Notes under the pieces: generated by a model
The model's input: only the letters and a program-made list of their open reading frames with translations
Databases searched by the model: none
What the model was told of the DNA's origin: nothing
Assembly (NCBI RefSeq): GCF_018130825.1
Contig: NZ_JAFCJS010000002.1
Span: 124,001 to 188,000 of the forward strand
Reading direction: 5' to 3'
Length of the DNA: 64,000 nt
Source: Bradyrhizobium liaoningense
GTDB taxonomy: Bacteria; Pseudomonadota; Alphaproteobacteria; Rhizobiales; Xanthobacteraceae
Position numbers and translations under genes: made by a program
Shown: piece after piece, positions 1 to 14,510 of the stretch
Layout of the letters: the number at the start of each line of letters is the position of its first letter
How positions within the stretch are numbered: position 1 is the stretch's first letter

Positions 1-386
1 AGGTGTCCATGCGCCGCAGTTCGACTCGCAATACTGTTTTTGGCGCAGTCTCTGCGTGAACTTGATGATCATGTTTATTCAAAGTGGAGGAGGGGCGGGC
101 TTTTGGTCGCCGAATCTACCTCCACGCGAACGCCGGTATGCAGCCGAATTTCGCGGTGCTCTGGCCGTAGTGTAGTCTCAGGGTGTTGCGGACACCGGAA
201 TCGCAAGTCGCCGCGTGAGCGTCGGGGAGCGAGCAGAGCAGCGCGTCAATCCAATCCAATATTGCACTGCGACATAGGCATCGATCGTATTAGAGAAATT
301 TCGAAAGGTCCGTCCTGCGCTGGGGGAAATAGCAGCACGTTCCAGGCGTTAATGTGTTTAGGGGGGCGCGGGCTGAGGAGCGCCCA
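1..386. other. Left-edge stretch without a recognisable gene
   Basis: No convincing coding region is seen before the response regulator at 387. The open frame running through 40-405 on the plus strand has no family resemblance, has odd composition and runs out of frame into the regulator gene. The segment presumably carries the promoter of the regulator, but I could not identify a convincing -35/-10 pair. Confidence 0.4.
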
Positions 387-1031
387 ATGCGACGTACTAA
401 CGTAGTCATTGCAGACCGGCATCCGGTCGTCCTGCAGGGACTGAGTAACGTGCTCAGTACCGCGGCGGACTTCAACATCATTGCGTCTTGTAGCGACACT
501 GCAAGCTGCATCCAGGCGATTCGTAACTTGGCGCCCGACATCGCGATTGTTGATCCCGCGATGCCCGAACTCGCCGCGCTGATAGTTCTCTCCGTCAATT
601 CAGAAAATCGTTCGACGCATTTGGTGTTTTTCGCCTCGAGTGAAGATTGCGGATTGCTTTTGGATGCCCCCTTTGCCTGCAGCATCGTCCTGAAGGATAC
701 GGAGCCAGAAGCGCTGGTGCAGTCGTTGCGGCACATCGCCAATGGCCGAGGTCTGCTGCCGATGATGTCATCCGGTTCGATCGCATCGCAGGAGCAGGGC
801 GCGAATTCGGACAAGATTGTGACATATCTGACGGACCGCGAGCGTCAGATCATGCGTCTGGTATGCGAAGGATTGTCGAATAAGGAAATCGGGCGGCGGC
901 TGGGCGTTTCCGTCGGCACCATCAAAGTGCACCTTCACAACATTTTTCAAAAACTTGAAATCAGCAATCGAACAGAGCTCGCGGCAATAGCTATCGCGCA
1001 AGATGATCGTGCGTCAGGTGGAGAGCACTAG
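387..1031 (+). CDS. LuxR/NarL-family response regulator
   Basis: A 214-residue two-component response regulator. Residues 1-115 form a receiver domain with the acidic residue D10, the phosphoacceptor D56 in IVDPAMPE, and a conserved lysine in IVLKDTEP. Residues about 145-205 form a LuxR-type helix-turn-helix (LTDREREIM-like opening, then EGLSNKEIGRRLGVS and TIKVHLHNIFQKL), the hallmark of NarL/FixJ regulators. The start at 387 is chosen because GAGGAG lies at 375-380; an in-frame upstream ATG at 354 has no such site. The acid pocket has ADRHP where DDHP is common, so one of the two usual acidic residues is missing. No histidine kinase gene is adjacent, so it is an orphan here and its target genes are unknown. 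Confidence 0.85.
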   Translation: MRRTNVVIADRHPVVLQGLSNVLSTAADFNIIASCSDTASCIQAIRNLAPDIAIVDPAMPELAALIVLSVNSENRSTHLVFFASSEDCGLLLDAPFACSIVLKDTEPEALVQSLRHIANGRGLLPMMSSGSIASQEQGANSDKIVTYLTDRERQIMRLVCEGLSNKEIGRRLGVSVGTIKVHLHNIFQKLEISNRTELAAIAIAQDDRASGGEH

Positions 1032-1513: not shown

Positions 1514-1768
1514 ATGTCCCTCGAGTTTCACCGTGCCGTCGACGATATGGAAATCTGGAGCGCGACTGGCGACGGCTTTTCGTTCGTTATCACGTATGAG
1601 AGCCCGGCTGGCGCCGGTTTTCATGGACGCGCAGGCTATGTGGCGTCATGGCGGCCGCTCTATGGGGGGAACGGCGCGATCAAGATCGGTGGTTCGGCGT
1701 TTGTATCTCTTGCGGAGGCCGAGAAGGCCTGCAACACGATGCTTGGGCATCTGACGGGGGCTGGCTGA
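1514..1768 (+). CDS. Small hypothetical protein
   Basis: An 84-residue protein of unknown function. It is rich in aromatic and glycine residues (WSATGDGFSF, GRAGYVASWRPLYGG) and has a regular amphipathic C-terminal helix (SLAEAEKACNTML), which argues for a real folded protein. It resembles small hypothetical proteins I associate with Bradyrhizobium, but no function can be given. The ribosome binding site is weak. It is convergent with the truncated reductase gene at 1680-1856, whose junk tail overlaps its 3' end. This suggests that a deletion or rearrangement brought the two together. Confidence 0.55.
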   Translation: MSLEFHRAVDDMEIWSATGDGFSFVITYESPAGAGFHGRAGYVASWRPLYGGNGAIKIGGSAFVSLAEAEKACNTMLGHLTGAG

Positions 1769-1856
1769 GTTGAAGAGCGGGTGAAGCCGGCGCGAGCCTG
1801 CGCACAATGGCCAAGCCGATACCACGGCTGCCGCCGGTGACGAGGATGTTACGCAT
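1680..1856 (-). pseudogene. Truncated SDR (ketoreductase-like) remnant
   Basis: Read from 1856 on the minus strand, the first 22 codons give MRNILVTGGSRGIGLAIVRR, the start of a short-chain dehydrogenase with the cofactor-binding TGGSRGIG motif. After about position 1791 the frame loses all resemblance and stops at 1680, giving only 58 residues against about 250 for the family. The ATG overlaps the end of the upstream acyl ligase (stop at 1849) by 8 bases, as expected for a translationally coupled fifth gene of that operon. It is therefore best read as the 5' stump of a FabG-like reductase lost by deletion. Confidence 0.75.
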
Positions 1857-3240
1857 CGGTGCGCGCCAGTTTTCCCGCTGCCGTGACCTCGAGTCGCTCG
1901 ACGAAACGGATCACCGCGGGTACCTTCCATGCTGCCAGGCCGTCCTTGCATTGGCTGAGTATCTCTGCGCGGATGGCCTCGTGGCGCTTCTCATCGGTGC
2001 CGCCCGCGAGGATGACGTCGGCAACCACGATGGCGCCCGTGATCGGGCTCTTGCGCGATCGCGCCCGCGACATTCGAACACAGGCGTGACGGTTGATCAC
2101 AGCCTCCACCTCTTCCGGATGCACCTTCAACCCGCCGATGTTGATAATGCCGCCTCGCCGGCCGACGAAATGGTATCGTTCGCCGCGCAACTCGACGATA
2201 TCGCCAGTATCGACGAAGCCCTCCGCGTCGGCGAGCGGCGGCGCATCGGCGCCGACATAGGCGCGCGCAGTACGCTTGGAGCGGATCCGCAACGAGCCCT
2301 CGACGACCTTCATCTCTACCCCGTCCCGATTTCGTCCGATCAGGTGGGCAGGAAACCCCTCGCGCCCGTCGTCGACGCTAAACCCAACTCCGGCTTCGGT
2401 TGAGGCATAGGCATGACCGATCGACGCGTGCGGATATGCCTGGGCCAGGCTGTCGAGCACGGCCTGGTCGGCGATTTCGCCGGACAAGCGGATATAGCGC
2501 GGCGAAAAATTGGCGGCCGCGCCGCTCATCAGGAGCTTGCGCCAGTGCGACGGCGTGCCGGAGATGTGGCTGACGCCGCCCGCGCGCAGCCGCTCCACAT
2601 GGGCCGCGATGGTTTCCCCGGGCTCGGATAGCACCATCGATCCACCGCCGATCACGGCGCGCAGGAGGATTTGCAGGCCGCCATAGCGGCGGATATCGTA
2701 GAACGTTGCCCAGGTGGCGTCACTGTGACGCGCAGGCCCCTCGGCGATTATCGCGCCGGCGAGCCCGTCGAGTGTGTGTCGGACGATTTTCGGCAACCCC
2801 GACGTCCCCGATGTCAGCATCAACCATTCGGTTGCGTGGTCCACCGTCGGTCTCGTGTCCGTCCGATCGGGCAGGTCGATGCCGATAATAGTGCATTTTC
2901 CCGCACGCGATCCGGATAGCGGTCGATCGGTGACGATGGTGTCGATCCCGGCCTGTTCGACCAGAGCCTGCAGGCGCTCCCAATCGAGATCGGGCGGGCA
3001 TAGAAGCATGCGGCGTGCGACGCCGTCGAGCTCGATCATTGCAAGCGCGGAGAACAGCTGTCTCGATGTCGCAAGCAGCACCGAGCGGCCGGACAACTCG
3101 TTGCATTCGCCGGCGAGGCAGCTGTGCTCGACCATGTCGGTCAGCGATACACTGTGCCGGGCGTCGGAAATGGTGCGGTCCTTCGCTCCCTGGCCGAGGT
3201 AGCGGCGCAGCGCGATGATGTCAGGCGGGAACATTCTCAT
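1849..3240 (-). CDS. AMP-forming acyl/aryl ligase (ANL superfamily)
   Basis: A 463-residue adenylate-forming enzyme that would activate a carboxylic acid as acyl-AMP and pass it to CoA or a carrier protein. Visible core motifs in order are the phosphate-binding loop LTSGTSGLPKIV, the STEAGVGF motif, the hinge region DTGDIVELRGERYHFVGRRG, and the C-terminal catalytic lysine in AAGKLARTD. It is shorter than typical acyl-CoA synthetases (500-600 residues), with a compact N-terminal domain. The start at 3240 (or the adjacent ATG at 3234) overlaps the end of the carrier-protein gene, implying translational coupling and suggesting that this carrier protein is its partner. The reported open frame extends to 3333, but that part overlaps the carrier protein out of frame. 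Substrate unknown. Confidence 0.85.
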   Translation of the reverse strand: MRMFPPDIIALRRYLGQGAKDRTISDARHSVSLTDMVEHSCLAGECNELSGRSVLLATSRQLFSALAMIELDGVARRMLLCPPDLDWERLQALVEQAGIDTIVTDRPLSGSRAGKCTIIGIDLPDRTDTRPTVDHATEWLMLTSGTSGLPKIVRHTLDGLAGAIIAEGPARHSDATWATFYDIRRYGGLQILLRAVIGGGSMVLSEPGETIAAHVERLRAGGVSHISGTPSHWRKLLMSGAAANFSPRYIRLSGEIADQAVLDSLAQAYPHASIGHAYASTEAGVGFSVDDGREGFPAHLIGRNRDGVEMKVVEGSLRIRSKRTARAYVGADAPPLADAEGFVDTGDIVELRGERYHFVGRRGGIINIGGLKVHPEEVEAVINRHACVRMSRARSRKSPITGAIVVADVILAGGTDEKRHEAIRAEILSQCKDGLAAWKVPAVIRFVERLEVTAAGKLARTDA

Positions 3241-3466
3241 AGGCTCTGACAAACTCACCGAGGGTAGACGGGAAGGCTGCGTCCTCGGCAATAGTGAAGG
3301 GATCAATACCGAGCTCGTCCTCCAGCCGCGCAACCAGGATAGCGAAGGCCAGCGAATCGAAGCCGGTTTCGTTCAGGGACAGGTCGTCCTGAAGAGGTGG
3401 AAGCGTGACTTGCTGTTCTTCGGAGATCTGCTTCATCGCGGAGAAAATCTTCGTTCTGACCGACAT
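3221..3466 (-). CDS. Acyl carrier protein 1 (free-standing)
   Basis: An 81-residue phosphopantetheine-binding carrier protein. The attachment site is S38 in the canonical GFDSLAF motif, followed by a helix ARLEDELGIDPF typical of carrier-protein helices. The start at 3466 is preceded by GAGGTG. The gene lies between two adenylate-forming ligases (ends overlap with the one at 1849-3240), so it probably accepts an acyl or aminoacyl group from one of them. It is too short to contain any other domain. It differs clearly from carrier protein 2 at 5409-5678, so the two probably carry different building blocks. Confidence 0.9.
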   Translation of the reverse strand: MSVRTKIFSAMKQISEEQQVTLPPLQDDLSLNETGFDSLAFAILVARLEDELGIDPFTIAEDAAFPSTLGEFVRAYENVPA

Positions 3467-3501
3467 GGTACACACCTCACATTTCGGCTTCGGAGCCAAT
3501 G

Positions 3502-5412
3502 TTAGAGCCTGATTTCGCCCTCGACGATGCGCGCGTAGACGGCCCGGTCGATCGAACGATAGCGACCGGTCACCGGATCGCGCACGAACAGCGGATCTCC
3601 CACGACCGAAGGATCGAACCCCTCGTAGATCAATCGCTGCTTCTTCTTCCTGAAAGTGTCGGTCGTATCCAGCGCGGGGCATAACCTGACGAAAGCCGGG
3701 ATCGCGTAAGGCGGCAAGCGATGCGAGAGGTATTCGCTGAACATTCCGAGGTCGAAATTTTGGTCCACCATCAGGGCCGCCATGCCGACGCGGCCGTCGG
3801 CCCCGGACACCGCAACTCCATAGGTCGAAGCGTCGAGAACGCCGGGGCAGTCGGCTATTGCATCGTTCACTTCGCTGGTCGCGACGTTCTCGCCCTTCCA
3901 GCGAAAGGTATCGCCGACGCGGTCGATGAAGTGGAGGTAGCCCTGCGCGTCGCGCATCATCAGATCTCCACTGCGGAACCAGGCATCCCCCCTTTCGAAT
4001 ACGTCGCGCAAGACCTTCTTCTTGGTCTCGGCGGGATCCGTGTAGCCCTCGAAAGGGCGGCCGTCGGAATTGGCCTCGCCGATACGTCCGACGGCCTCGC
4101 CGGTCTCGCCGGGGGCGCACGCGATGCATAGCCCCGCCTCGTTACGGATCGGGCCGCCGCTGTCGGCGTCGACCTTGACGAGCGAGGTCGGAAAGCGATG
4201 CGCCAGAACCGGCGGTATCCGGCCGATCGCGCCCGGCTTTCCGTCCACGTTGAACAGCGAAAAATTGCCTTCGGTTGCAGCATAGAATTCGAGGATCTGC
4301 GGAATCGCGAACCGGTTGGCGAACATCTCCCAGATGTCGCGGCGCAACCCGTTCCCGACAGCCAGCCGCAGCCGGTGCCGCGTCTCTTGTTCAGATACTG
4401 GCGCCTTCAGCAAATACCGGCAGAGCTCGCCAATGTACTGGAAGACGGTACAGTCGAAACGCTCGATGTCGCGCCAGAAGCCGCCGGCGGAAAATTTCTC
4501 CGCAATCGCGACAGAACCGCCCGCGCAGAGCATGCTGCAGGGAGCCGCGACGCCACCCACGGAGTGATGGAGCGGCAGGCAATCGTAGAGACGATCGTCG
4601 GTGGACGCGTCCGTCAGTCCGGCAAACCACCCACCCCAGGCGAGAACGCGACGATGACTGACGTTCGCCGCCTTCGGCAAGCCGGTGGTGCCCGAGGTGT
4701 AAATGAGGAGCGCGCGCCCATCGATCGTGACGTCGCCGCGTTCGTCGGAGGACAGCGGTCGTGGTTCGAAGGCGGAGAGCGCCGCATCCAGATCGTTGCG
4801 TCGATCGCCTGTGCCAAGGCTCCAGCATTGCGGCACGCGGTGCAGGTGGGGACGCGCGCCCTCGAAGGCGTCCACGCAATCGGCAGCGAGGATGAGGTGA
4901 TCGGCATCAGCGACGTCGATACAATGGGCGAGCGACCGGCCGACCAGCCTGGTGTTGATCAGCGCCACCGTTCCGCCGACGCTGCTGATACCGAGCCAGC
5001 AGGCGAGGTAGTCCGGGCGGTTCGGTGCCAGCAGGCAGACGGTGCGACCGGCATGAAGGCCAAGGTGCAGTGCCCAACGCGCATAGCGGTTGATCCGGTT
5101 GGTGAGCTCGCCGTAGGTGAAGGATTGGCCATCCGAGAGCAAGGCGGCACGCCCGGGCTGCCGTTGTGCCCAGTCCTCGATGATGTCGGCGAACAAGCGA
5201 TGCGGCTGGGCTTCGAGCCGTGCGGTCAGTGCGATGGCTTGCAGCCAGGTCTTGGCGGCGGAGCGCCGCGGAGCGTCGCGTCTGGTCGCGCTCTCGATCA
5301 CGGCTTTGTTTGCGAGTTGATCATGCGGCCGGGCTGGATCGGTATCCTCGCGCACCCGGGCGAAGCGGCTTGCCTGGTTCTCGAAGCGCAATCTTTGTTC
5401 AACTGGCTTCAT
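3502..5412 (-). CDS. Very-long-chain/FATP-type acyl-CoA (or acyl-ACP) synthetase
   Basis: A 636-residue adenylate-forming enzyme. Motifs are LLIYTSGTTGLPKAANVSH (phosphate-binding loop), EFYAATEGN (a motif typical of the FATP/ACSVL branch), DAWFRSGDLMMRDAQGYL, FIDRVGDTFRWKGENVAT and a C-terminal TFRKKKQRLIYEGFDP, all characteristic of very-long-chain acyl-CoA synthetases such as FadD6 and FATP. About 50 N-terminal residues are extra. The ATG at 5412 overlaps the stop of carrier protein 2 as ATGA, so the two are translated together and the ligase may load that carrier protein instead of, or as well as, CoA. It likely supplies a fatty acyl group to the cluster product; the chain length cannot be judged from sequence. 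Confidence 0.88.
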   Translation of the reverse strand: MKPVEQRLRFENQASRFARVREDTDPARPHDQLANKAVIESATRRDAPRRSAAKTWLQAIALTARLEAQPHRLFADIIEDWAQRQPGRAALLSDGQSFTYGELTNRINRYARWALHLGLHAGRTVCLLAPNRPDYLACWLGISSVGGTVALINTRLVGRSLAHCIDVADADHLILAADCVDAFEGARPHLHRVPQCWSLGTGDRRNDLDAALSAFEPRPLSSDERGDVTIDGRALLIYTSGTTGLPKAANVSHRRVLAWGGWFAGLTDASTDDRLYDCLPLHHSVGGVAAPCSMLCAGGSVAIAEKFSAGGFWRDIERFDCTVFQYIGELCRYLLKAPVSEQETRHRLRLAVGNGLRRDIWEMFANRFAIPQILEFYAATEGNFSLFNVDGKPGAIGRIPPVLAHRFPTSLVKVDADSGGPIRNEAGLCIACAPGETGEAVGRIGEANSDGRPFEGYTDPAETKKKVLRDVFERGDAWFRSGDLMMRDAQGYLHFIDRVGDTFRWKGENVATSEVNDAIADCPGVLDASTYGVAVSGADGRVGMAALMVDQNFDLGMFSEYLSHRLPPYAIPAFVRLCPALDTTDTFRKKKQRLIYEGFDPSVVGDPLFVRDPVTGRYRSIDRAVYARIVEGEIRL

Positions 5413-5678
5413 CCCGACCCGGATCCGAGCTGGTTGAGGATCATCCGCTCCATCGCCTTCACCGATTGGAAGTTCTCGGGCGTGATCTCGAGTTGGGGAA
5501 GGATGAGATCGAACTCGGCTTCGACCTTGAGCATCAACTCGACCATGCCCATCGAGCTCAGCCCAATGTCCACGAGTCGCGACTCCGGGTGGACCTCGGC
5601 GATGATTGCGTTCTGCTGGAGGACGCTCCTGACGACCGATAGGACGCGGTTCTGAACGTTGACGGCAAAGTCGTGCAT
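5409..5678 (-). CDS. Acyl carrier protein 2 (free-standing)
   Basis: An 89-residue phosphopantetheine-binding protein. The attachment serine is S42 in VDIGLSSMGMVEL, in which Ser-Ser-Met replaces the usual Asp-Ser-Leu; Asp to Ser before the attachment serine is uncommon but occurs in specialised carrier proteins. The start at 5678 has AGGAG 10 bases upstream; the open frame extending to 5900 reads into the divergent promoter region and is not real. It is the first gene of the minus operon, divergent from the acyl-CoA-dehydrogenase-like gene, and coupled by ATGA overlap to the synthetase at 3502-5412. It is one of two candidates for the partner of the amino acid:[carrier protein] ligase at 7172-8176. 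Confidence 0.88.
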   Translation of the reverse strand: MHDFAVNVQNRVLSVVRSVLQQNAIIAEVHPESRLVDIGLSSMGMVELMLKVEAEFDLILPQLEITPENFQSVKAMERMILNQLGSGSG

Positions 5679-5920
5679 TTCAGCCGGTCTCCTGCCGTGG
5701 CCAGGCGTGATCACATGGAGGCGACGATACCCAACTGTACCTTCGGCCAACAGCTCTGCTTCCGAGGTACCTCGCCCGGGAGCGGAAGAGTCCTGACACC
5801 CACTTCTGCGCCAAGGACGCGGTGAGGGAAGTGGGCTACTTGTCGCTTTTGATCGGAATTCGTCTCGACCCGGCTTGCATCGTTCAATCATGACAACCAC
5901 GAAGCGGGAGGCTCTGGCCC
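5679..5920. promoter_or_regulatory. Divergent promoter region of the biosynthetic cluster
   Basis: A 242-base gap separates the two divergent operons, so both promoters should lie here. I see ribosome binding sites for both (AGGAG for the carrier protein, GGGAGG for the dehydrogenase) but no convincing sigma-54 or sigma-70 element and no clear operator palindrome. The location is inferred from gene layout. Confidence 0.5.
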
Positions 5921-7147
5921 ATGACTGTGCAGGAAGTTCAGTTCCGCAACAGCGCCACCGAAACTGGTCGAATTACCTTCTCTCCCGACTACCCCTCGTT
6001 CCAACAGCGAACGGCAAATGTCGTGGAGGTCGCCGCGGCGGAGGCAGAAGCGGTCGATCGCGAGGCGCGCTTCCCGCGGAAGGCGATCGACGCGGCGCGG
6101 AAGGAAAGACTTCTGGGAGTTCAGATTCCGATCGAGTTCGGCGGGGAAAGCGCAGCCATCTCCGAGGTCGCGGATATGTGCTACGCGCTCGGCCGCGCCT
6201 GCGCCTCGGTCGGAATGATCTTCGCGATGCATCAGACCAAGGTCGCGTGCCTGGTTCGCCACGGCGCGGACAGTTCGTGGCACGAAAATCTCATGCGACG
6301 CGTGGCTGCCGAGCAGCTGCTGCTGGCATCATCGACCACGGAAGGGCAGAACGGCGGAAACATTCGCTTCAGCTCGGCCGCGGTGGAACGCGCGGGCACC
6401 GAGATTTCGCTGCTGCGCGACGCGACGGTGATTTCCTACGGCGCGGAGGCGGACGGCATCATCACCGTCGCTCGTCGCTCCGAATCCGCTGCCGGATCTG
6501 ATCAGGTGCTGCTGGCCATCACCCGTGATGACTATACCCTGGAGCGCACTCTGGGGTGGGAGACGCTCGGCATGCGCGGGACCTGCAGCGCAGGCTTCAA
6601 GCTGAATTTCAGGGGGACTTCAGACCAGATATTCCCCGTGGCATACGAAAAGATCCATGCGCAGACGATGACGCCCGTCGCTCATCTGTGCTGGTCCTCG
6701 GTCTGGGCGGGAATCGCGGCAGCCGCGGTGGATCGGGCACAGCTGTTCGTCCGCAAGGCCGCTCGCGGGTCGGGCGGCAATATGCCTCCTGCCGCGGCGC
6801 ACTTCACCGCCGCCAGGATGACCCTGACGAAATTGCGGGCCGTCATCGCGGCGAATCTGCAGTTCTATGAAGCTCGTGGGCAGGACGTGCGCGCGCTGTC
6901 GTCCGTTGACTTCCAGTCCTCGATCAATCTCCTCAAGGTGGAGGCCTCCGAGCTTGCGGTTGCGACCGTCATGCACGCGATGCGCACCTGCGGCCTGTCC
7001 GGTTACCGCAACGACACCGACGTGAGTATCGGCCGCCACCTGCGGGACGTGCTTTCCGCTCCGATCATGATCAACAACGATCGCATCCTCGCCAATATTG
7101 GCCCCGCCACGCTCATGAGCACGGTTCCAGACTCTCTGTGCGATTGA
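5921..7147 (+). CDS. Acyl-CoA dehydrogenase-like flavoprotein
   Basis: A 408-residue member of the acyl-CoA dehydrogenase superfamily (alpha-helical N domain with FGGESAAISEVADMCYALGR, middle beta domain around residues 140-240, C-terminal helical bundle). The usual C-terminal block with the catalytic glutamate (YEGTS) is not present; at the matching place (about residues 378-390) the protein has LSAPIMINNDRIL. It may therefore use another base or catalyse a different flavin reaction, as some carrier-protein-acting relatives do. GGGAGG precedes the start. It heads the operon containing the amino acid:[carrier protein] ligase, which suggests that it oxidises an aminoacyl or acyl group held on a carrier protein. 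The identity of the substrate is inference. Confidence 0.85.
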   Translation: MTVQEVQFRNSATETGRITFSPDYPSFQQRTANVVEVAAAEAEAVDREARFPRKAIDAARKERLLGVQIPIEFGGESAAISEVADMCYALGRACASVGMIFAMHQTKVACLVRHGADSSWHENLMRRVAAEQLLLASSTTEGQNGGNIRFSSAAVERAGTEISLLRDATVISYGAEADGIITVARRSESAAGSDQVLLAITRDDYTLERTLGWETLGMRGTCSAGFKLNFRGTSDQIFPVAYEKIHAQTMTPVAHLCWSSVWAGIAAAAVDRAQLFVRKAARGSGGNMPPAAAHFTAARMTLTKLRAVIAANLQFYEARGQDVRALSSVDFQSSINLLKVEASELAVATVMHAMRTCGLSGYRNDTDVSIGRHLRDVLSAPIMINNDRILANIGPATLMSTVPDSLCD

Positions 7148-7171
7148 GTTTCTTCTGAAAGGAAAGGCCTG

Positions 7172-8176
7172 ATGAAGTTCGCCATTGTTGAAGCACCGGC
7201 GCTCTCCACTCAACCTGCAGCCGATCCGTTGGACCATCTCGCCGATGCGCTGTTCCACGAGATGGGGTCTCCCGGCGTCTATGGCCGTACCGCGCTCTAC
7301 GAAGACGTCGTGGAGCGGATTGCCGCGGTGATCTCACGGAATCGCGACCCGAACACCGAGGTGATGCGTTTTCCACCCGTCATGAATCGCGCCCAGCTCG
7401 AGAGGTCGGGTTACCTGAAGAGCTTTCCCAATCTGCTCGGCTGCGTCTGTGGCTTGCACGGCATGGAAAGTGAGATTGACGCGGCGGTCAGCCGCTTCGA
7501 TGCCGGCGGCGACTGGACCACGTCGCTATCGCCCGCCGATCTCGTTCTGTCGCCGGCCGCCTGCTATCCGGTCTATCCGATCGCGGCGAGCCGGGGGCCC
7601 GTGCCGGCCGGCGGCTGGACCTTCGACGTGGCCGCCGACTGTTTCCGCCGCGAACCGTCGCGCCATCTCGACCGGCTGCAGTCGTTCCGAATGCGGGAAT
7701 TCGTCTGCATCGGTAGTGCGGATCACGTCTCGGCGTTCCGGGAACGTTGGATCATACGTGCGCAGAATCTTGCTCGGGATCTCGGGCTGACCTTCAGGGT
7801 CGACCATGCCAACGACCCGTTCTTCGGCCGGGTCGGCCAGATGATGGCGGTAAGCCAGAAGCAGCTTTCGCTGAAGTTCGAACTGCTGGTGCCGCTGCGC
7901 TCCGAGGAGCAACCGACCGCCTGCATGAGCTTCAACTACCACCGGGATCATTTCGGCACGACCTGGGGCATCGTCGATGCAGCCTCCAAGCCGGCCCACA
8001 CGGCCTGCGTGGCGTTCGGAATGGATCGTCTGGCCGTCGCCATGTTCCATACCCACGGCAAAGACGTCGACTGGTGGCCGACCGCAGTGCGCGAGCTGCT
8101 GGGCTTCGCGCCGACCGACGGCCGAGCACCTTCAGCAAGCGAGGAGGTCCGATGCGCCAGGGAAGTCGGGAGCTAG
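7172..8176 (+). CDS. Amino acid:[carrier protein] ligase (class II aaRS homologue)
   Basis: A 334-residue truncated homologue of class II (seryl-type) aminoacyl-tRNA synthetases that lacks a tRNA-binding domain. Motif 2 is visible as SFRMREFVCIG (residues 171-181) and motif 3 as FGMDRLAVAMF (282-292). Residues C131, E176 and C279 fall exactly at the zinc-ligand positions I recall for the Bradyrhizobium enzyme Bll0957. That family activates a small amino acid (glycine or alanine) with ATP and transfers it to the phosphopantetheine arm of a stand-alone carrier protein instead of to tRNA. Two such carrier proteins are encoded just upstream on the other strand. Its 3' end overlaps the start of the PLP enzyme. 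The amino acid used here is not certain. Confidence 0.9.
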   Translation: MKFAIVEAPALSTQPAADPLDHLADALFHEMGSPGVYGRTALYEDVVERIAAVISRNRDPNTEVMRFPPVMNRAQLERSGYLKSFPNLLGCVCGLHGMESEIDAAVSRFDAGGDWTTSLSPADLVLSPAACYPVYPIAASRGPVPAGGWTFDVAADCFRREPSRHLDRLQSFRMREFVCIGSADHVSAFRERWIIRAQNLARDLGLTFRVDHANDPFFGRVGQMMAVSQKQLSLKFELLVPLRSEEQPTACMSFNYHRDHFGTTWGIVDAASKPAHTACVAFGMDRLAVAMFHTHGKDVDWWPTAVRELLGFAPTDGRAPSASEEVRCAREVGS

Positions 8177-9510
8177 CCCGGGGCAGGAGAGCCGAAGAGC
8201 CAGCGACCATGAGAAGAGAGACTGTCGCCGTTCATGGCGGCTTCGAAGATGATCCGGCAACGAAGGCTGTTGCCGTGCCAATCTACCAGACGGCCTCCTA
8301 TGCATTCGACAGCGCCGACCATGGAGCGGCGCTCTTCAACCTCGAAGTCGACGGCTTCCGTTATACCCGGATCGGCAATCCAACAAACGCCGTGCTGGAG
8401 AAGCGCGTTGCCGCCCTTGAAGGAGGCATCGAGGCACTCAGCGTCGCCTGTGGGCAGGCTGCGGTGAACTATGCGGTGGTCAACATCGCGGAAATGGGCT
8501 CCAATATCGTCTCGATTCCGCAGCTCTACGGCACCACCCATACGCTGTTCGCGCACATCCTGCCGCGGCAGGGCATTGATGTCCGCTTTTCGGAAGACGA
8601 CCGGCCGGAAAGTGTCGAAAGGCTGATCGACGACGACACACGCGCGGTTTTCTGTGAGAGCGTGGGAAATCCGGCCGGAAACGTCTGCGACATCCAGGCA
8701 ATGGCGGAGGTCGCGCACCGGCACGGTGTCCCACTGATCGTCGACAACACCGTGCCGACACCGATGCTGCTCAGGCCGATCGAATACGGCGCTGACATCG
8801 TTGTGGAGTCGCTGACGAAATTCATGGGCGGGCATGGCACGACGCTCGGTGGAATTATCATCGACGGCGGCAGATTCCCCTGGACCGAGCATCGCCGGCG
8901 CTTTCCGATGATGAACGAGCCGGAGAAATCGTACCACGGGCTGGTCTTCACCGACCGCTACGGCGCCGCTGCTTACATTGCGCGTTGCCGCGCCGTTTCG
9001 CAAAGGACCACCGGCGCCGTGCTGGCGCCGATGAACGCCTTCCTGCTGCTTCAGGGCATCGAGACCGTCGCGCTCCGGATCGAGCGGCATGTCGAGAATG
9101 GCGCCAAGGTCGCGCGATTCTTGCGCGATGACGGCCGTGTCGGGTGGGTGAATTATGCGGGCTTTCCCGACAGCCCCTATTTTGCGCTGACGCAGAAGTA
9201 TCTGGACGGTCGAGCGTGTTCGCTGTTGACCTTTGGCGTCGCCGGAGGCTTCGAGGCGGGCAAGCGGTTCTACGACAGGCTCAAGCTCTGCAAGCGGCTG
9301 GTCAACATTGGCGATGCGAAAACGCTCGCCTGCCACCCCGCGTCGACGACGCACCGGCAGATGTCCGTCGAGGAACAGGAGAAAGCCGGCGTGCGGCCCG
9401 AGATGATCAGGCTGAGCGTCGGAATCGAGCACATCGACGACATCCTCGCGGATCTCGATCAGGCGCTCTGCGCAGCGAGCGTTTCGTCAAACGTGAAGGC
9501 ATTCGGATGA
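8152..9510 (+). CDS. O-acylhomoserine sulfhydrylase-like PLP enzyme
   Basis: A Cys/Met-metabolism PLP enzyme closest in pattern to O-acetylhomoserine (thiol)-lyases: PIYQTASYAFDSADH, RIGNPTN, and the Schiff-base lysine in SLTKFMGGHGTTLGG (K223 from this start). Such enzymes replace the acyloxy group at the gamma carbon of O-acylhomoserine with a sulfur or other nucleophile. The start at 8152 is chosen because GAGGAGG lies 4 bases upstream; it overlaps the preceding gene by 25 bases and gives 452 residues. The alternative ATG at 8209 gives 433 residues, closer to the family norm, but has no good binding site. Its stop overlaps the MetA-like gene as ATGA, so the two enzymes likely act in sequence. 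Confidence 0.88.
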   Translation: MRQGSRELARGRRAEEPATMRRETVAVHGGFEDDPATKAVAVPIYQTASYAFDSADHGAALFNLEVDGFRYTRIGNPTNAVLEKRVAALEGGIEALSVACGQAAVNYAVVNIAEMGSNIVSIPQLYGTTHTLFAHILPRQGIDVRFSEDDRPESVERLIDDDTRAVFCESVGNPAGNVCDIQAMAEVAHRHGVPLIVDNTVPTPMLLRPIEYGADIVVESLTKFMGGHGTTLGGIIIDGGRFPWTEHRRRFPMMNEPEKSYHGLVFTDRYGAAAYIARCRAVSQRTTGAVLAPMNAFLLLQGIETVALRIERHVENGAKVARFLRDDGRVGWVNYAGFPDSPYFALTQKYLDGRACSLLTFGVAGGFEAGKRFYDRLKLCKRLVNIGDAKTLACHPASTTHRQMSVEEQEKAGVRPEMIRLSVGIEHIDDILADLDQALCAASVSSNVKAFG

Positions 9511-10649
9511 CTGTCTTAATCGATATCGATTCACACGATCACCACCTCTTCTCCAGAGCGCCGCGCGGCGCCTGTGCGACGGCGTCGCAAGGAAACCGGG
9601 GAGAGTGTCTGGACATCGGGCTCATCAACAACATGTCGGATGCCGCCCTGATGTCGACCGAGCGGCAGCTGTTCGATCTGCTCGATGCGGCTGCCGGACG
9701 ACTGTGCGTCAGGCTGCACTTTTATGCGATGGCGGCGACGCCCCGTTCGGAATGGGGACGCGATTACGTGGGTCGATACTACCGTGGCATCGATGATCTG
9801 CTGAACAGGAGCCTGGATGGCGTGATCATCACGGGCGCCGAACCCAGGGCCGCCAGCCTCACGGAAGAGCCATATTGGAGCACCTTCACCGAGATCGCCG
9901 ACTGGGCGACCGAGAATACCGTGTCGTCGGTATTTTCCTGCCTGGCTGTCCATGGGGCCGTCCTGCACCGGGACGGCGTTGTGCGCCACAAGCTGCCTGG
10001 CAAATGCTTCGGTGTCTTCGCTCAAACGAAGACGAGACATCATCCCTTGATGCAGGATGTTCCGAGGACCTTCGGGATACCGCACGCCCGTTGGAACGAG
10101 GTGCAGGAGGAGGATCTCTCGGACTGCGGATATTCAGTTCTCACTTGGTCGGCGGAGGCCGGGGTCGACTGCTTCGTCAAGCAGCAGAAGAACAGCCTAT
10201 TCGTCCATTTCCAGGGCCACCCGGAATACGAAACCCAGAGCCTGCTGGGTGAATATCGGAGGGATATGGGGCGTTTCCTCCGGGGAGAGAACGAAGTCTG
10301 TCCGACGATACCGAGAGGCTACCTGAACGAGGGCGCGGAAAAGATGCTGATCGCTTTCCGACAGAAGGCCCTTTCGGACAGAAACCCGGAGCTTTTCGCT
10401 GATTTTCCAGCCGATCAGCTGGCGAAGGACCTGAGCAACGTCTGGCGTCTTCCGGCCCAGCGCATATACCGCAACTGGTTGCGCTACATCGTCACGCAGC
10501 GACGCGCACACTCGATGCGAGAAGCAGCTCTCGCTGCAGCCGGAATTCCGGCCCGTCGCCACGGACGCAAGTTGGTTGTCGCTCGATCCGCTCGCCTGGC
10601 GCGCTCGCCAAACCAGGGGACCATGAGGCGGCTCGGATACAACGAGTGA
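9507..10649 (+). CDS. MetA-like homoserine O-acyltransferase
   Basis: A 380-residue homologue of homoserine O-succinyltransferase/acetyltransferase (MetA). The acyl-enzyme cysteine is C145 in FSCLAVHGAV, and H238 and E240 in QGHPEYE complete the triad; the N-terminal block IGLINNMSDAALMSTERQ is the family signature. It would make O-succinyl- or O-acetylhomoserine, the substrate of the PLP enzyme encoded immediately upstream with ATGA overlap. It has about 70 residues more than typical MetA (about 310), in a basic C-terminal tail. Placement in a carrier-protein cluster instead of a met locus suggests a dedicated precursor supply, although general methionine synthesis cannot be excluded. Confidence 0.87.
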   Translation: MTVLIDIDSHDHHLFSRAPRGACATASQGNRGECLDIGLINNMSDAALMSTERQLFDLLDAAAGRLCVRLHFYAMAATPRSEWGRDYVGRYYRGIDDLLNRSLDGVIITGAEPRAASLTEEPYWSTFTEIADWATENTVSSVFSCLAVHGAVLHRDGVVRHKLPGKCFGVFAQTKTRHHPLMQDVPRTFGIPHARWNEVQEEDLSDCGYSVLTWSAEAGVDCFVKQQKNSLFVHFQGHPEYETQSLLGEYRRDMGRFLRGENEVCPTIPRGYLNEGAEKMLIAFRQKALSDRNPELFADFPADQLAKDLSNVWRLPAQRIYRNWLRYIVTQRRAHSMREAALAAAGIPARRHGRKLVVARSARLARSPNQGTMRRLGYNE

Positions 10650-10692
10650 GAGTCTAGATAATGATCCGCTGCCGTGAGATAGGAACAAGCGC

Positions 10693-11131
10693 GAGACGCC
10701 CGACCGCTTCCCGCGCTTTGGCTATATGCTCGAGCACGACCAGGCACCTGTCGGCGCTCTGCTGTTGATCCACACCGCAAGGAACGAGGGCGGTGGTGCC
10801 TCCATCCGCTGCAATCTCTCCAGCTGTGTCGCGCTGGCGATGGCCGCGCCTTTCCGTTCGTGCTGCAGCCGATGCGGATCCGTCGCATCAGGCTGCCGGT
10901 GATGCAATTGATCTATTGCGCCGATCTGGCCGACTACGTCGTTTGCGCCGGCGCTATGGGGCGCTTCCTGGTTCGACGCGGCTGGATGTCGATTGCTCTC
11001 GATGCCAATGGCCCCGTGACCGGCCTCCTCGGCATCTACAGGGAGCCGATCGGCCGGAAGTACTTCAAGGGTCCGCATTGCCCTGGCTTGCCGATCTGTC
11101 CGACTCGGAGCTGGTGATCTACGGGCCGTGA
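10693..11131 (+). pseudogene. Frameshifted acetyltransferase-like (GNAT) pseudogene
   Basis: Three short stretches in different frames read as consecutive parts of one protein. From 10693 comes FPRFGYMLEHDQAPVGALLL and SIRCNLSS. From about 10860 in another frame come FLVRRGWMSIALDANGP and GRKYFKGPH. The last stretch, LADLSDSELVIYGP with a stop at 11131, is in a third frame. The pattern fits GNAT-type acyltransferases seen in rhizobia. The N-terminus and a central part are missing and at least two frameshifts are needed, so it is a decayed gene. It marks the right edge of the biosynthetic cluster. Confidence 0.6.
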
Positions 11132-11406
11132 CTTCGTCGTTCCATGACAGTTCCAAACGGGGCGCCAGCAAGTTCAATGCGGGTGTCGATCAGATGCTCC
11201 GCGCGCCGGTGGCGGGCAAACGCCTCCATCGCCCCTCAGGGCGCCATAAGAATTCGCTATGGCGGCAGAGGACAGTCGTGCTTCCCCTGTCATCAAACGT
11301 AAATCTATTTTTTACCGTCGGCCGCAGCAAAAAATTCCAAGGGCAAGACCACCGAAGTGGCACAGTTCGCGGGCGCATCATTTTGTGGCAGCAATGGAGC
11401 GGGCTA
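11132..11406. other. Upstream region of importer operon B
   Basis: No gene is recognised between the acetyltransferase remnant and the binding-protein gene. The segment holds the NAC-type palindrome at 11243-11263 and presumably the promoter of the importer operon. AT-rich sequence at 11284-11340 (TAAATCTATTTTTTACCG) is a plausible promoter area but no clear -35/-10 pair is claimed. Confidence 0.5.
11243..11263. promoter_or_regulatory. NAC-type LysR operator (ATA-N9-TAT palindrome), site 1
   Basis: The site is GCCATA, nine bases, TATGGC, a perfect 6-base inverted repeat containing ATA-N9-TAT, the published NAC binding consensus. It lies 143 bases before the binding-protein start. The same palindrome, with matching flanks (CGCCATAAG before, TATGGCGGCAG after), recurs at 18400-18420. 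The NAC-like regulator gene is at 17402-18340. Confidence 0.75.
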
Positions 11407-12594
11407 ATGACGATCGAGTTGAGCCGACGGGGATTTTGCATCGGAACCGCTCTGGTTGGGCTCCAGACGATGTCCTCCGCCGCCTTCGCGGCCCGAAGTG
11501 AAGACGGGACAGTGAGGCTTGGTCTCGTTGCGCCCATGAGCGGCCCGAACGCCCGGTATGGGGCGTTTTCGATGCGCGGCGCCCAGATGGCCGCGAAGGA
11601 AATCAACGACGCCGGCGGCGTCGGCGGACGCAAGATCAACGTCATGCCCGGGGACAGTCAGGGTACGCCGGTCGAGGGCGTTTCTGCGACCCGCCGTCTG
11701 ATCGACCAGGACCGGGTCGACTTCATCATCGGCGATGTCTCGAGCTCGGTCACGCTGGCCATGCAGCCGGTCGCCGAGGACGCCGGCATGCTTCTACTCA
11801 ATGCGGCCTCGTCGAATCCGATGATCACCTACAAGGCGGGCGTCGGCGGCTTCAAATGGTCCTTCCGCAACTATCCGACCGACGAGAACCGCGCACTGCT
11901 CGTGCTGCAGTACGCGGCCGAAAAGAAGGGCTTCACCAAATACGCCGTGCTCTCGGTCGACAGCGATTACGGCCGCGCCGCCATCCAGTTCACCAAGAAA
12001 TACCTGCCGCGCTTCAAGAGCGCGATCCTGACGGAAGACTACTACAAGGAGGGCGAGGTGGATTTCCGCAGCGTGCTCTCCAAGATCCGCGACTCCGGCG
12101 CCCAGGCCATCATCATGTACGGCAATGCCGATTCCTCGCCCATCGTCGGGCGCCAGATGATGGAAGTCGGAATCGCAGGCAAGATCCCGCTGATCGGCAA
12201 CGCCGAGTTCAATACGGCGAGCACCATCAAGGCGGCGCCGAAGGCGATGGAGGGCGCGATCGAGGCTGCAGCGTGGCTTCCGGCGTACGACTCTCCGAAG
12301 AGCAAGGCTTTCGTCGAAAAATTCACTGCCGAATATCGCGAAGCTCCCAACAATCACGCTTACGTGCATTGGGAGACGGTGCATCTCCTCGCCAAGGCGA
12401 TCGAGCAGGCCAAGAGCGTCGATCGAGAGAAAGTCCGCGCCGCGCTCTCTGGCATCAAATATGATAGCGCGGTCGGCGAGGTCACCTTCGACGATCACAA
12501 CCAGGCACGCCTGCCGATGATCCTCCTCGAGATCGAGGGCGGCAAGCCCGTGATCAAGGGCGCCTACAAGGCCGAGATCGACTACCCCAAGTAA
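11407..12594 (+). CDS. livK: Branched-chain amino acid-type ABC substrate-binding protein (Tat signal)
   Basis: A 395-residue periplasmic type-I binding protein (LivJ/LivK family). The N-terminus has a twin-arginine motif SRRGFCIG followed by a hydrophobic stretch and an AFA-A cleavage-like site, so it is probably exported folded. The mature part opens with VRLGLVAPMSGPNARYGAF, the usual first strand and loop of the family, and ends with a C-terminal lobe containing VGEVTFDDHNQA. It would capture an amino acid, amide or similar small molecule and deliver it to the permeases encoded directly downstream. The ligand is not evident. The start at 11407 is chosen because the signal peptide begins there; upstream in-frame codons are unrelated. 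Confidence 0.88.
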   Translation: MTIELSRRGFCIGTALVGLQTMSSAAFAARSEDGTVRLGLVAPMSGPNARYGAFSMRGAQMAAKEINDAGGVGGRKINVMPGDSQGTPVEGVSATRRLIDQDRVDFIIGDVSSSVTLAMQPVAEDAGMLLLNAASSNPMITYKAGVGGFKWSFRNYPTDENRALLVLQYAAEKKGFTKYAVLSVDSDYGRAAIQFTKKYLPRFKSAILTEDYYKEGEVDFRSVLSKIRDSGAQAIIMYGNADSSPIVGRQMMEVGIAGKIPLIGNAEFNTASTIKAAPKAMEGAIEAAAWLPAYDSPKSKAFVEKFTAEYREAPNNHAYVHWETVHLLAKAIEQAKSVDREKVRAALSGIKYDSAVGEVTFDDHNQARLPMILLEIEGGKPVIKGAYKAEIDYPK

Positions 12595-12606
12595 GAACGG
12601 TGGCCC

Positions 12607-13479
12607 ATGTTCTACACGATCATCGAGCAGGTCGTTAACGGCATCGTTTCCGGATCGGTCTACGCGATCGTTGCCGTCGGCATGACGATGATCTTCGGCG
12701 TCCTGCGTGCGATCAACTTCGCTCATGGCGAATACTACATGCTCGGGACGTTCGGGGCCTGGTTTGCGATCGACTATTTCGATCTGCCCTATCCGGTCGC
12801 GGTCGTGATCGGCGTGGTTGCGACGGCGGCCATTGCCGTCGTCGTCGGCAACTTTGTGATGCAGAGGATCGTGGGAGCGCCGGCGGAGGCTGGCGTTCTC
12901 GCCACGCTCGGCGTCGCCCTGATCCTGCAGAACGCGGTGATCCTGGTCTTCGGCGGCAGCTACAAGTTCTTCTCCGGCGGCTATATCGAGCCGGTGAGCG
13001 TTTTGGGCTTCACCCTGGCCGAACAGCGCATCCTGATCATCATCGTCGGCCTCATCGTGTTCGTCGGGCTCGAGCTGATGGTGACCTACAGCCGGATGGG
13101 CAAGGCCATGCGCGCGGTCTCCCAGAACATCGAGTGCTGCGCAGTGGTCGGTATCGACGTTCGCCACATCGCGCTGTGGACGTTCATCGTCGGTGCCTGT
13201 CTTGCCGCGCTCTCGGGCGTGCTGACCGCGCCGGTGAACGTGAGCGTCTATGGCGGCATGGGCGAGCTGATCACCTTCAAGACGCTGCCGATCATCATCA
13301 TGGGCGGGCTTGGCAACGTGCGCGGCACGTTCGTCGCTGCCATGATCCTCGGTATCGCCGAGAGCCTGGTCGCGACTTACGTCGGCCTGCAATTCCGCGA
13401 CACGGTCGGCTTCGCAACCCTGATGCTGGTGCTGATGTGGCGTCCGCACGGGCTCTTTTCCGCGCAGGCGCGCTTCTAG
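12607..13479 (+). CDS. livH: LivH-type ABC permease
   Basis: A 290-residue inner-membrane permease of the branched-chain amino acid importer family. It begins with VNGIVSGSVYAIVAVGMTMIFGV and AINFAHGEYYMLG, the conserved first membrane segments of LivH, and has about eight hydrophobic segments. Near the C-terminus it has PIIIMGGLGNVRGTF, matching the cytoplasmic coupling region that contacts the ATPase. It follows the binding protein by 12 bases and precedes LivM, in the standard order binding protein-H-M-G-F. Confidence 0.92.
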   Translation: MFYTIIEQVVNGIVSGSVYAIVAVGMTMIFGVLRAINFAHGEYYMLGTFGAWFAIDYFDLPYPVAVVIGVVATAAIAVVVGNFVMQRIVGAPAEAGVLATLGVALILQNAVILVFGGSYKFFSGGYIEPVSVLGFTLAEQRILIIIVGLIVFVGLELMVTYSRMGKAMRAVSQNIECCAVVGIDVRHIALWTFIVGACLAALSGVLTAPVNVSVYGGMGELITFKTLPIIIMGGLGNVRGTFVAAMILGIAESLVATYVGLQFRDTVGFATLMLVLMWRPHGLFSAQARF

Positions 13480-13496
13480 AGATGCGGTGGTGACAG

Positions 13497-14510
13497 GTGA
13501 GCGAGATCGCCCGAGAGCCGAACATGACGTCCGCTGAACTCACGGCCGCAACGACGGGGCGGGACCTTCGCGTTCCCTTCGGCGTCGCGCTCGTGGTGCT
13601 GGCATGTGTCGCGCCGCTGTTCCTCGGCAATTATCCCCTGCACGCAATGATCATCGCGCTGATCTTCCTCCTGCCGGCGCACGGGCTCAACCTGCTGCTC
13701 GGTTACACCGGCCTGCTGTCGCTGGCGCAGGCGGCGTTCTTCGGCATCGGCGCCTACACGTCCGCGCTGCTCGCGGTGCATTTCGGCACACCTTTCTATG
13801 TGAACTTCCTGGCAGCGGGACTGATGGCCGGCGCGATCGCGCTGCCGCTCGGCATTCCGGCGCTGAGGCTGCGTGCGACGTCGTTCGTGATGTGTACGCT
13901 GGGCTTCGTCATCATCGGCCAAGCCATCGCCAAGAACTGGATCAGCCTGACGCGCGGCGACATGGGCTTGGCGGCGATTCCAAAACCTTATTTTGCGCTG
14001 GGGCCGGCTTCGTTCACCGTCTCCGGCACGGTCGGCTTCTACTATCTGGTCCTCGCCATCGCCGCGATCGCCACGCTGGTCGCCTTCCTCATCGTCCGTT
14101 CGCCGGCCGGACGAAACATGATCGCCATCCGCGAGAACGAGACGCTGGCGGAATCCGTCGGTATCCCCACCTGGCACTACAAGCTGGTGGTGTTCATGAT
14201 CAGCGCCACGTTCGCCGGTCTCGGCGGCAGCCTCTATGCGCACTACCTCACCGTCGTCAGCCCGCTCACGTTCCAGATGTACTACTCGACCACGATGCTG
14301 ATCATCGTGCTCGGCGGCGGCGCCGGGACCATTTCGGGCGTCATCTTCGGCAGCCTGTTGTTCGTCGGTCTCACCGAAGCGCTGCGCGTCACGCCGGAGC
14401 TGCGCATGATCGCCTATGGCTTCTTCCTGCTTGGGCTCGTGTTCTGGTTTCCGAGCGGATTCGCGCCGCTGATCGGCCGCTTCTGGTCTTTCCTTGAGAG
14501 GCGCAAATGA
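13497..14510 (+). CDS. livM: LivM-type ABC permease
   Basis: A 337-residue second permease of the same importer. LLPAHGLNLLLGYTGLLSLAQAAFFGIGAYTSA at about residues 60-90 in two adjoining motifs (LNLLLGYTGLLSLAQ, FFGIGAYTSALL) is diagnostic of LivM, and LGGGAGTISGVIFGSLL is the coupling region. The start is given as GTG at 13497; an ATG at 13524 is an alternative. The 3' end overlaps the ATPase gene as ATGA. Confidence 0.92.
   Translation: MSEIAREPNMTSAELTAATTGRDLRVPFGVALVVLACVAPLFLGNYPLHAMIIALIFLLPAHGLNLLLGYTGLLSLAQAAFFGIGAYTSALLAVHFGTPFYVNFLAAGLMAGAIALPLGIPALRLRATSFVMCTLGFVIIGQAIAKNWISLTRGDMGLAAIPKPYFALGPASFTVSGTVGFYYLVLAIAAIATLVAFLIVRSPAGRNMIAIRENETLAESVGIPTWHYKLVVFMISATFAGLGGSLYAHYLTVVSPLTFQMYYSTTMLIIVLGGGAGTISGVIFGSLLFVGLTEALRVTPELRMIAYGFFLLGLVFWFPSGFAPLIGRFWSFLERRK

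What the first reader, a model, noticed from the sequence alone, without database searches (positions are those of the whole stretch)
1680..10649. Compact amino acid:[carrier protein] ligase biosynthetic cluster
One divergent locus encodes two free carrier proteins, two adenylate-forming ligases, an acyl-CoA-dehydrogenase-like flavoprotein, an amino acid:[carrier protein] ligase, an O-acylhomoserine sulfhydrylase-like enzyme and a MetA-like acyltransferase. Seen directly: gene content, ATGA couplings, zinc-site residues C131/E176/C279. Known: aaRS-like ligases of this family load glycine or alanine on stand-alone carrier proteins. Inference: the product is a homoserine-derived or dehydro-amino-acid small molecule, possibly acylated by the FATP-type ligase. 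The homoserine pair recalls the logic of rhizobitoxine synthesis, where an O-acylhomoserine-type enzyme makes a gamma-substituted homoserine, but the desaturase RtxC is absent.
Basis: partly seen in the sequence, partly recalled or inferred. Interest (0 to 1): 0.85.

Follow-up and report, generated by a model that had tools for sequence, protein, structure and literature searches.

The report
Carrier-protein amino acid biosynthesis cluster
A soil-bacterium gene cluster that should load an amino acid onto a small carrier protein proves to be one reduced copy of a larger, widely shared but uncharacterised pathway, which makes the unknown purpose of that loading step testable.

Summary
The eight genes are real and at the stated place: ANL1, CP1, FATP, CP2, divergent from ACAD, aaCL, MetY, MetA. 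All 18 named loci found with a close aaCL are Bradyrhizobium and keep this order. The cluster is not a complete unit. Fuller relatives run SDR-ANL1-CP1-FATP-CP2//ACAD-aaCL-MetY-MetA-GNAT-AT4-TPP; the window keeps only stubs of SDR and GNAT. The same genome holds a second, dispersed set of the genes at three loci. Over 265 genus genomes aaCL, ANL1 and MetA go together: 171 with all three, 83 with none, not corrected for kinship. Of 15 genomes of other families with the ANL1 ligase, 14 have aaCL and 13 a MetA. MetY-MetA therefore most likely belongs to the pathway. I read it as a carrier-protein assembly line that loads glycine (or a similar amino acid), oxidises it, builds an acyl partner and a homoserine-derived unit, and passes a product to an amine by a GNAT transferase; the acceptor is perhaps a surface glycan, since several distant copies lie among polysaccharide genes. 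Product and acceptor are inferred. The rhizobitoxine analogy is not supported.

The parts
354..1031 (+). NarL-type response regulator, candidate regulator
   Evidence: GerE and NarL-like profile hits, the NarL one below its cut-off; near full-length homologue (64-88%) beside the cluster in 9 of 18 loci, L052-L059 and L068
1514..1768 (+). 84-aa protein of unknown family
   Evidence: no Pfam or NCBIfam hit; homologue in 8 of 18 loci, one partial
1782..1856 (-). stub of the SDR (FabG-like reductase) that follows ANL1 in relatives
   Evidence: 25 codons, 72% identical to the SDR of the dispersed set
1849..3240 (-). ANL1, short adenylate-forming ligase (463 aa from ATG 3240; searches used 1849-3255)
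   Evidence: PF00501 and PF13193; none of the 25 best NCBIfam families shown reaches its cut-off; start checked
3221..3466 (-). CP1, free carrier protein (81 aa, GFDSL)
   Evidence: PF00550; sequence
3502..5412 (-). FATP-type acyl-CoA synthetase
   Evidence: NF006134 above cut-off
5409..5678 (-). CP2, free carrier protein (89 aa, GLSSM), presumed partner of aaCL
   Evidence: PF00550; a CP2 relative lies beside ACAD-aaCL in distant loci
5679..5920 (.). intergenic region between the two divergent arms, presumed promoters
5921..7147 (+). ACAD-like flavoprotein without the usual loop glutamate
   Evidence: PF02771 and PF00441; Ile or Val at that column in 22 of 22 aligned
7172..8176 (+). aaCL, amino acid:[carrier protein] ligase
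   Evidence: NF005479 above cut-off; matches Bll0957 (3mey) over residues 13-315
8209..9510 (+). MetY-like O-acylhomoserine sulfhydrylase
   Evidence: PF01053 and TIGR01326 above cut-off; PLP-lysine motif at K204
9507..10649 (+). MetA-like homoserine O-acyltransferase
   Evidence: NF003776 above cut-off; C145, H238, E240 invariant in 10 of 10 aligned
10690..11128 (+). broken remnant of the GNAT transferase gene
   Evidence: three fragments, 51-59% identical to the intact paralogue

Best explanation
SHOWN: the window cluster is a shortened paralogous copy of a gene set that recurs in several families of its order: CP2, ACAD, aaCL, ANL1, CP1, SDR, FATP, GNAT, MetY and MetA, often with AT4 (class IV aminotransferase), a TPP enzyme, an esterase and a cupin. 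INFERRED: these form one pathway. aaCL loads glycine (or a similar small amino acid) on CP2. The ACAD-like flavoprotein oxidises the bound amino acid by a route that does not use the usual loop glutamate. ANL1 loads an acyl acid on CP1 and the SDR reduces it; FATP activates a further acyl group. MetA acylates homoserine and MetY replaces the acyl group by a nucleophile, giving a gamma-substituted amino acid. The GNAT protein moves a carrier-bound group onto an amine, most likely of a surface-glycan amino sugar or its precursor. In the window copy the missing SDR and GNAT steps must come from the dispersed copies in the same genome, or the reduced cluster makes a simpler product.
For: Order kept in 18 of 18 close loci. 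Genus, 265 genomes: aaCL 176, ANL1 179, MetA 175, all three 171, none 83; cluster-type MetA (69% or more) in 40, and in 37 of these ANL1 (75% or more) lies 3.7-6.4 kb away. Order sample, 397 genomes: ANL1 in 26, aaCL in 93. Outside the genus 14 of 15 ANL1 genomes have aaCL and 13 of 15 a MetA. All 13 outside genomes with aaCL 57% identical or more have ANL1, against 1 of 69 with a more distant aaCL (threshold chosen after seeing the gap). Most genes in one locus: L084, L129, L131, L133, L136. MetA lies 3.8-6.6 kb from the core aaCL in at least 12 Bradyrhizobium genomes. Glycan genes near the set in 7 of 15 distant stretches, four genera. Polysaccharide deacetylase beside the dispersed MetY-MetA. 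Purifying selection. One clade of extended copies for aaCL, ANL1 and MetY. Published prediction that the related Atu2573 group amidates a cell-surface sugar (PMC2922099, passages).
Against: No product, substrate or phenotype is known. No glycan gene was recognised beside the cluster in the window, and I ran no control for how often such genes lie near any locus. The window copy lacks SDR, GNAT, AT4 and TPP. In 6 of 15 distant stretches aaCL is not present; five of those genomes have it elsewhere, G589 has neither aaCL nor MetA. The share of order genomes with a MetA but no ANL1 was not measured, and MetA is only 32-33% identical in two genomes, so that count is weak by itself. Genus co-occurrence is not corrected for kinship: the 83 genomes with none may be few clades. 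Structure models of GNAT and ACAD were poor.
Confidence: 0.5

Rival explanations
1. The cluster makes a secreted small molecule: MetA and MetY make a gamma-substituted homoserine that is acylated and carries a carrier-protein-derived group, without a glycan.
For: MetA keeps its catalytic residues and MetY its PLP-lysine motif. FUB7, which makes a carbon-carbon bond on a homoserine derivative (recalled), is among the structure matches of MetY. No glycan gene was recognised beside the cluster in the window.
Against: No exporter, desaturase or RtxA-type fusion among the cluster proteins. Glycan genes lie near the set in 7 of 15 distant stretches.
Confidence: 0.25
2. MetY-MetA is a methionine supply or salvage pair, or a bypass of an inhibited step, that merely shares the locus.
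For: Both enzymes look complete; MetY is 69% identical to the MetY of the other MetY-MetA pair in the genome. Genes that read like methionine-salvage genes lie near the core cassette in five loci.
Against: The pair lies between aaCL and GNAT in fuller relatives, occurs with aaCL and ANL1 in the genus, and is linked to aaCL in other families. The genome has seven proteins of the MetY superfamily.
Confidence: 0.15
3. The window cluster is a decaying relic without function.
For: SDR and GNAT are broken; AT4 and TPP are gone.
Against: The eight genes are open and constrained, dN/dS 0.00-0.27 in 40 comparisons. The GNAT fragments also show low ratios (about 0.18-0.31 against two relatives), so low ratios alone cannot exclude a recent loss of function.
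Confidence: 0.1

Closest known systems
Bll0957/Bll0958 of Bradyrhizobium diazoefficiens (amino acid:[carrier protein] ligase 1 and its neighbour)
   Same: aaCL matches Bll0957 over residues 13-315. bll0957 and bll0958, the latter annotated acyl-CoA dehydrogenase, stand in consecutive rows of a table (PMC10888616, passages).
   Different: The window copy adds ANL1, CP1, FATP, MetY and MetA in the same locus; the Bll0957-type core of this genome is a separate locus (L003).
Type I cassette CP-ACAD-aaCL-DUF1839-GH2 (Azospirillum, Rhizobium, Mycetohabitans; Atu2573/Atu2574 group of PMC2922099)
   Same: The CP-ACAD-aaCL triad in the same order in the 3 records opened of 94 plasmid records with a match.
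   Different: DUF1839, placed in the papain-like fold (PMC10318531, passages), and GH2 follow. Neither is found in the window or in 11 other type II loci tested; both are in L087 and L088, neither in L089 or L090. The distant aaCLs form a separate clade, 100/100.
Rhizobitoxine (rtx) pathway of Bradyrhizobium elkanii
   Same: Uses an O-acetylhomoserine-sulfhydrylase-type domain (PMC3222319, passages).
   Different: RtxA is a fusion with an aminotransferase, and RtxC is a desaturase; neither is among the cluster proteins.
BtrH-type acyl transfer in butirosin synthesis
   Same: Logic: a group on an acyl carrier protein is passed to an aminoglycoside (BtrH so named in PMC10318531, passage; details recalled).
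   Different: The transferase here is GNAT-like on weak evidence.

Membership tests
amino acid:[carrier protein] ligase (NF005479) | family profile above its curated cut-off | tested here: met
   475 bits, cut-off 357
amino acid:[carrier protein] ligase (NF005479) | Cys/Glu/Cys zinc site | tested here: met
   C131, E176, C279
amino acid:[carrier protein] ligase (NF005479) | stand-alone carrier protein beside the gene | tested here: met
   CP2, divergent from ACAD-aaCL, in the window and distant loci
amino acid:[carrier protein] ligase (NF005479) | loads an amino acid on the carrier protein | not testable with these tools
   needs protein chemistry
rhizobitoxine pathway | RtxA fusion of aminotransferase and sulfhydrylase domains | tested here: not met
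   MetY is a stand-alone 433-aa protein; PF01053 covers residues 4-420
rhizobitoxine pathway | desaturase RtxC in the cluster | tested here: not met
   none among the eight cluster proteins; the rest of the genome was not searched
homoserine O-acyltransferase MetA | Cys/His/Glu catalytic residues (roles recalled) | tested here: met
   C145, H238, E240 invariant in 10 of 10; aligned with 2h2w and 2ghr
homoserine O-acyltransferase MetA | Gly or Glu at the acyl-donor position (rule recalled) | tested here: not met
   Arg, Lys, Val or Ile in the 10 aligned rows; the donor is open
acyl-CoA dehydrogenase | catalytic glutamate in the C-terminal loop (motif recalled) | tested here: not met
   Ile or Val in 22 of 22; the best structure match, 7p98, also lacks it there, and a base elsewhere is not excluded
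type I aaCL cassette | DUF1839 and GH2 genes beside aaCL | tested here: not met
   no tblastn match in the 64-kb window

The most novel reading that the evidence does not exclude
A new class of carrier-protein assembly line, shared by several families of the order, joins an oxidised glycyl thioester made by a former aminoacyl-tRNA synthetase fold, a reduced acyl group and a gamma-substituted homoserine into one substituent and puts it on a surface glycan or another amine. The window carries a second, streamlined copy that makes a variant of it.
Probability: 0.35. Interest if true: 0.8.

Novelty: new variant of a known kind. Interest (0 to 1): 0.62.

Why it matters
[quoted passage not shown] Tying the ligase to a defined set of about ten to fourteen genes that occur together turns that question into gene deletions and metabolite comparisons in ordinary Bradyrhizobium strains.

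Tried and rejected
Eight genes as the complete unit: rejected, because fuller relatives keep SDR, GNAT, AT4 and TPP in the same runs.

MetY-MetA as plain methionine genes: lowered by co-occurrence and linkage, not excluded.

Cispentacin-type enzymes: AmcH and AmcB profiles are matched far below cut-off (51 against 370 bits, 34 against 80).

ACAD as an ordinary dehydrogenase or an oxygenase: left open. The model was too poor to use (mean pLDDT 37.9) and no fold search was run on it. TdaE (PMC8283759, passages) shows that an ACAD-like enzyme can be an oxygenase; an analogy only.

GNAT fold: weak model (mean pLDDT 57, pTM 0.43). Its 31 Foldseek matches at E <= 0.001 are, where the titles tell, acetyltransferases or N-myristoyltransferases, but TM-scores by query length are only 0.22-0.37. 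One of three GNAT proteins had a Pfam GNAT hit, below cut-off. Support, not proof.

Literature: searches listed no paper that, by title and start of abstract, describes this gene set. The library holds open-licence papers only; the founding paper (PMC2930448) is not held and is known here through citations and recall. Listed papers not named elsewhere in this report were seen as listings only.

Not measured: MetA frequency in order genomes without ANL1; frequency of glycan genes near random loci; a species tree.

Changes after re-checking: ANL1 start moved to 3240; the cause for G305 mended (a deletion, not a contig end); DUF1839 tested in more loci.
Full report
OBSERVATION. The zinc residues are at the stated positions; CP2/FATP and MetY/MetA are ATGA overlaps. 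ANL1 most likely starts at 3240 (463 aa); my searches used five more residues. aaCL matches Bll0957 (3mey) over residues 13-315. The window lies in an unnamed 8.08 Mb genome. The 18 loci that the genome-contig scan returned, of 40 stretches with a pattern, are all Bradyrhizobium; that scan sees close relatives only.

CONSERVATION AND MISSING GENES. The order is kept in 18 of 18 loci, with ANL1 broken in L059 and split in L055, and most of FATP missing in L066. By tblastn with the dispersed paralogues, the window holds 25 codons of an SDR just after ANL1 (1782-1856) and three fragments of a GNAT gene after MetA (10690-11128). Fuller versions (L060, L062, L063, L069, L110, L111) run SDR-ANL1-CP1-FATP-CP2//ACAD-aaCL-MetY-MetA-GNAT-AT4-TPP, some with a cupin nearby; L065 has its GNAT only as a 38% paralogue on the other strand. 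Other loci have lost TPP, AT4, SDR or GNAT in various combinations and in no fixed order. L053 ends too early to judge AT4 and TPP. The eight genes of the window are constrained: dN/dS 0.00-0.27 in 40 comparisons.

A SECOND, DISPERSED SET. The same genome has a core cassette CP2/ACAD/aaCL/GNAT (L003), a MetY-MetA pair with a polysaccharide deacetylase (L079; 69% and 44% identity to the window proteins), and FATP-CP1-ANL1-SDR (L094). In seven fetched Bradyrhizobium core loci, six of them chosen because searches showed the two genes close, MetY-MetA lies near the core cassette (L095-L100, L107). In at least 12 genomes the gap from aaCL to MetA is 3.8-6.6 kb.

CO-OCCURRENCE IN THE GENUS. Of the same 265 genomes, aaCL is in 176 (E <= 1e-20), ANL1 in 179 (E <= 1e-60), MetA in 175 (E <= 1e-60). 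All three are in 171, at least one in 182, none in 83. The two genomes with aaCL alone (G183, G236) have it only at the distant level (E about 1e-95). Cluster-type MetA (69% identity or more) is in 40 of 265; in 37 of the 40 ANL1 (75% or more) lies 3.7-6.4 kb away on the same contig. Of the other three, G242 and G387 agree in contig coordinates with L055 and L059, whose ANL1 is split or broken; in G305 the stretch from within SDR to within aaCL is missing (L109). None of this is corrected for kinship.

BEYOND THE GENUS. In an order sample of 397 genomes ANL1 occurs in 26 (E <= 1e-80) and aaCL in 93 (E <= 1e-20). Of the 15 ANL1 genomes outside the genus, from four families, 14 have aaCL and 13 a MetA (two of these at 32-33% identity, and no baseline for MetA was taken). 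All 13 outside genomes whose aaCL is at least 57% identical to the window's have ANL1; of the 69 with a more distant aaCL one (G652) has it; the threshold was set after seeing the gap between 57% and 55%. I fetched one stretch round ANL1 in each of the 15. CP1 and SDR flank ANL1 in 15 of 15; GNAT is in 12, aaCL in 9. Five of the six without aaCL have it elsewhere; G589 does not. L129 holds MetY, MetA, CP2, ACAD, aaCL, SDR, ANL1, CP1, GNAT, AT4 and FATP within about 15 kb. L084 with its neighbour stretch L142 holds the ten core genes. Recurrent further genes are AT4, a TPP enzyme, an Abhydrolase_3 esterase and a Cupin_3 protein.

TREES. The extended copies form one clade for aaCL (100/99, 21 rows), ANL1 (100/100, 19 rows) and MetY (100/99, 21 rows) (part of the output cut). 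For ANL1 the nearest row is a Bradyrhizobium core copy (100/94); for aaCL the place among the core copies is weakly supported (81/34); for MetY, with a midpoint root, the nearest row is another genus, L085 (98/96). The distant aaCLs (L087-L090, L114-L116) form a separate clade, 100/100. Of these L087, L088 and L114-L116 carry DUF1839 and GH2; L089 and L090 do not. None of the window and 11 other type II loci tested does.

FUNCTION. The glycan idea rests on context. A flippase-type protein, glycosyltransferases, a Wzz protein and a GINT1-like protein were identified by Pfam beside copies in L128, L130, L137 and L138. Relatives of these in L127, L129, L131 were seen by similarity or reading. That is 7 of 15 stretches in four genera, without a control. 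A polysaccharide deacetylase lies beside the dispersed MetY-MetA (its nearest NCBIfam model, HfsH, is below cut-off). In that group the putative transferase is DUF1839; here a GNAT-like protein stands in its place. The ACAD lacks the usual loop glutamate in 22 of 22, which fits an unusual oxidation of glycine, a residue without a beta carbon, but a base elsewhere is not excluded. MetA keeps its catalytic residues in 10 of 10, yet has neither Gly nor Glu at the donor position (rule recalled). Glycine is taken from what is reported for Bll0957 (recalled; the review lists Gly, Ala and Ser for the group).

VERDICT. A real, constrained cluster that is a reduced paralogous copy of a shared, uncharacterised gene set. 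That the set is one pathway is well supported; product and acceptor are inference.

Noticed in passing
L115 5497-11356 (Rhizobium gallicum plasmid pRgalIE4872c): The type I cassette CP-ACAD-aaCL-DUF1839-GH2 lies between nif genes and an ACC deaminase gene.
   Followed up: no
L095, L096, L098, L099, L100: Genes that read like methylthioadenosine phosphorylase or methylthioribose-1-phosphate isomerase lie near the core cassette; names are by my reading of the sequences.
   Followed up: no
L065 14927-15805 and L068 14902-15774: A distant GNAT paralogue (38-39%) lies on the other strand beside two extended clusters in which the usual GNAT was not found.
   Followed up: no
L089, L090: Two family-level loci with ACAD-aaCL (L089 also with a CP2 relative) showed neither the type II partner genes nor DUF1839/GH2 in the fetched 16 kb, so a third context may exist.
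   Followed up: partly
window 11299-16010: ORFs that read like a branched-chain amino acid ABC transporter follow the cluster; not scanned against a library.
   Followed up: no
G000:C12:1039800-1041389 (L143, L146): The best homologue in this genome of the TPP enzyme of L060 is only 39% identical and lies far from the pathway loci.
   Followed up: partly
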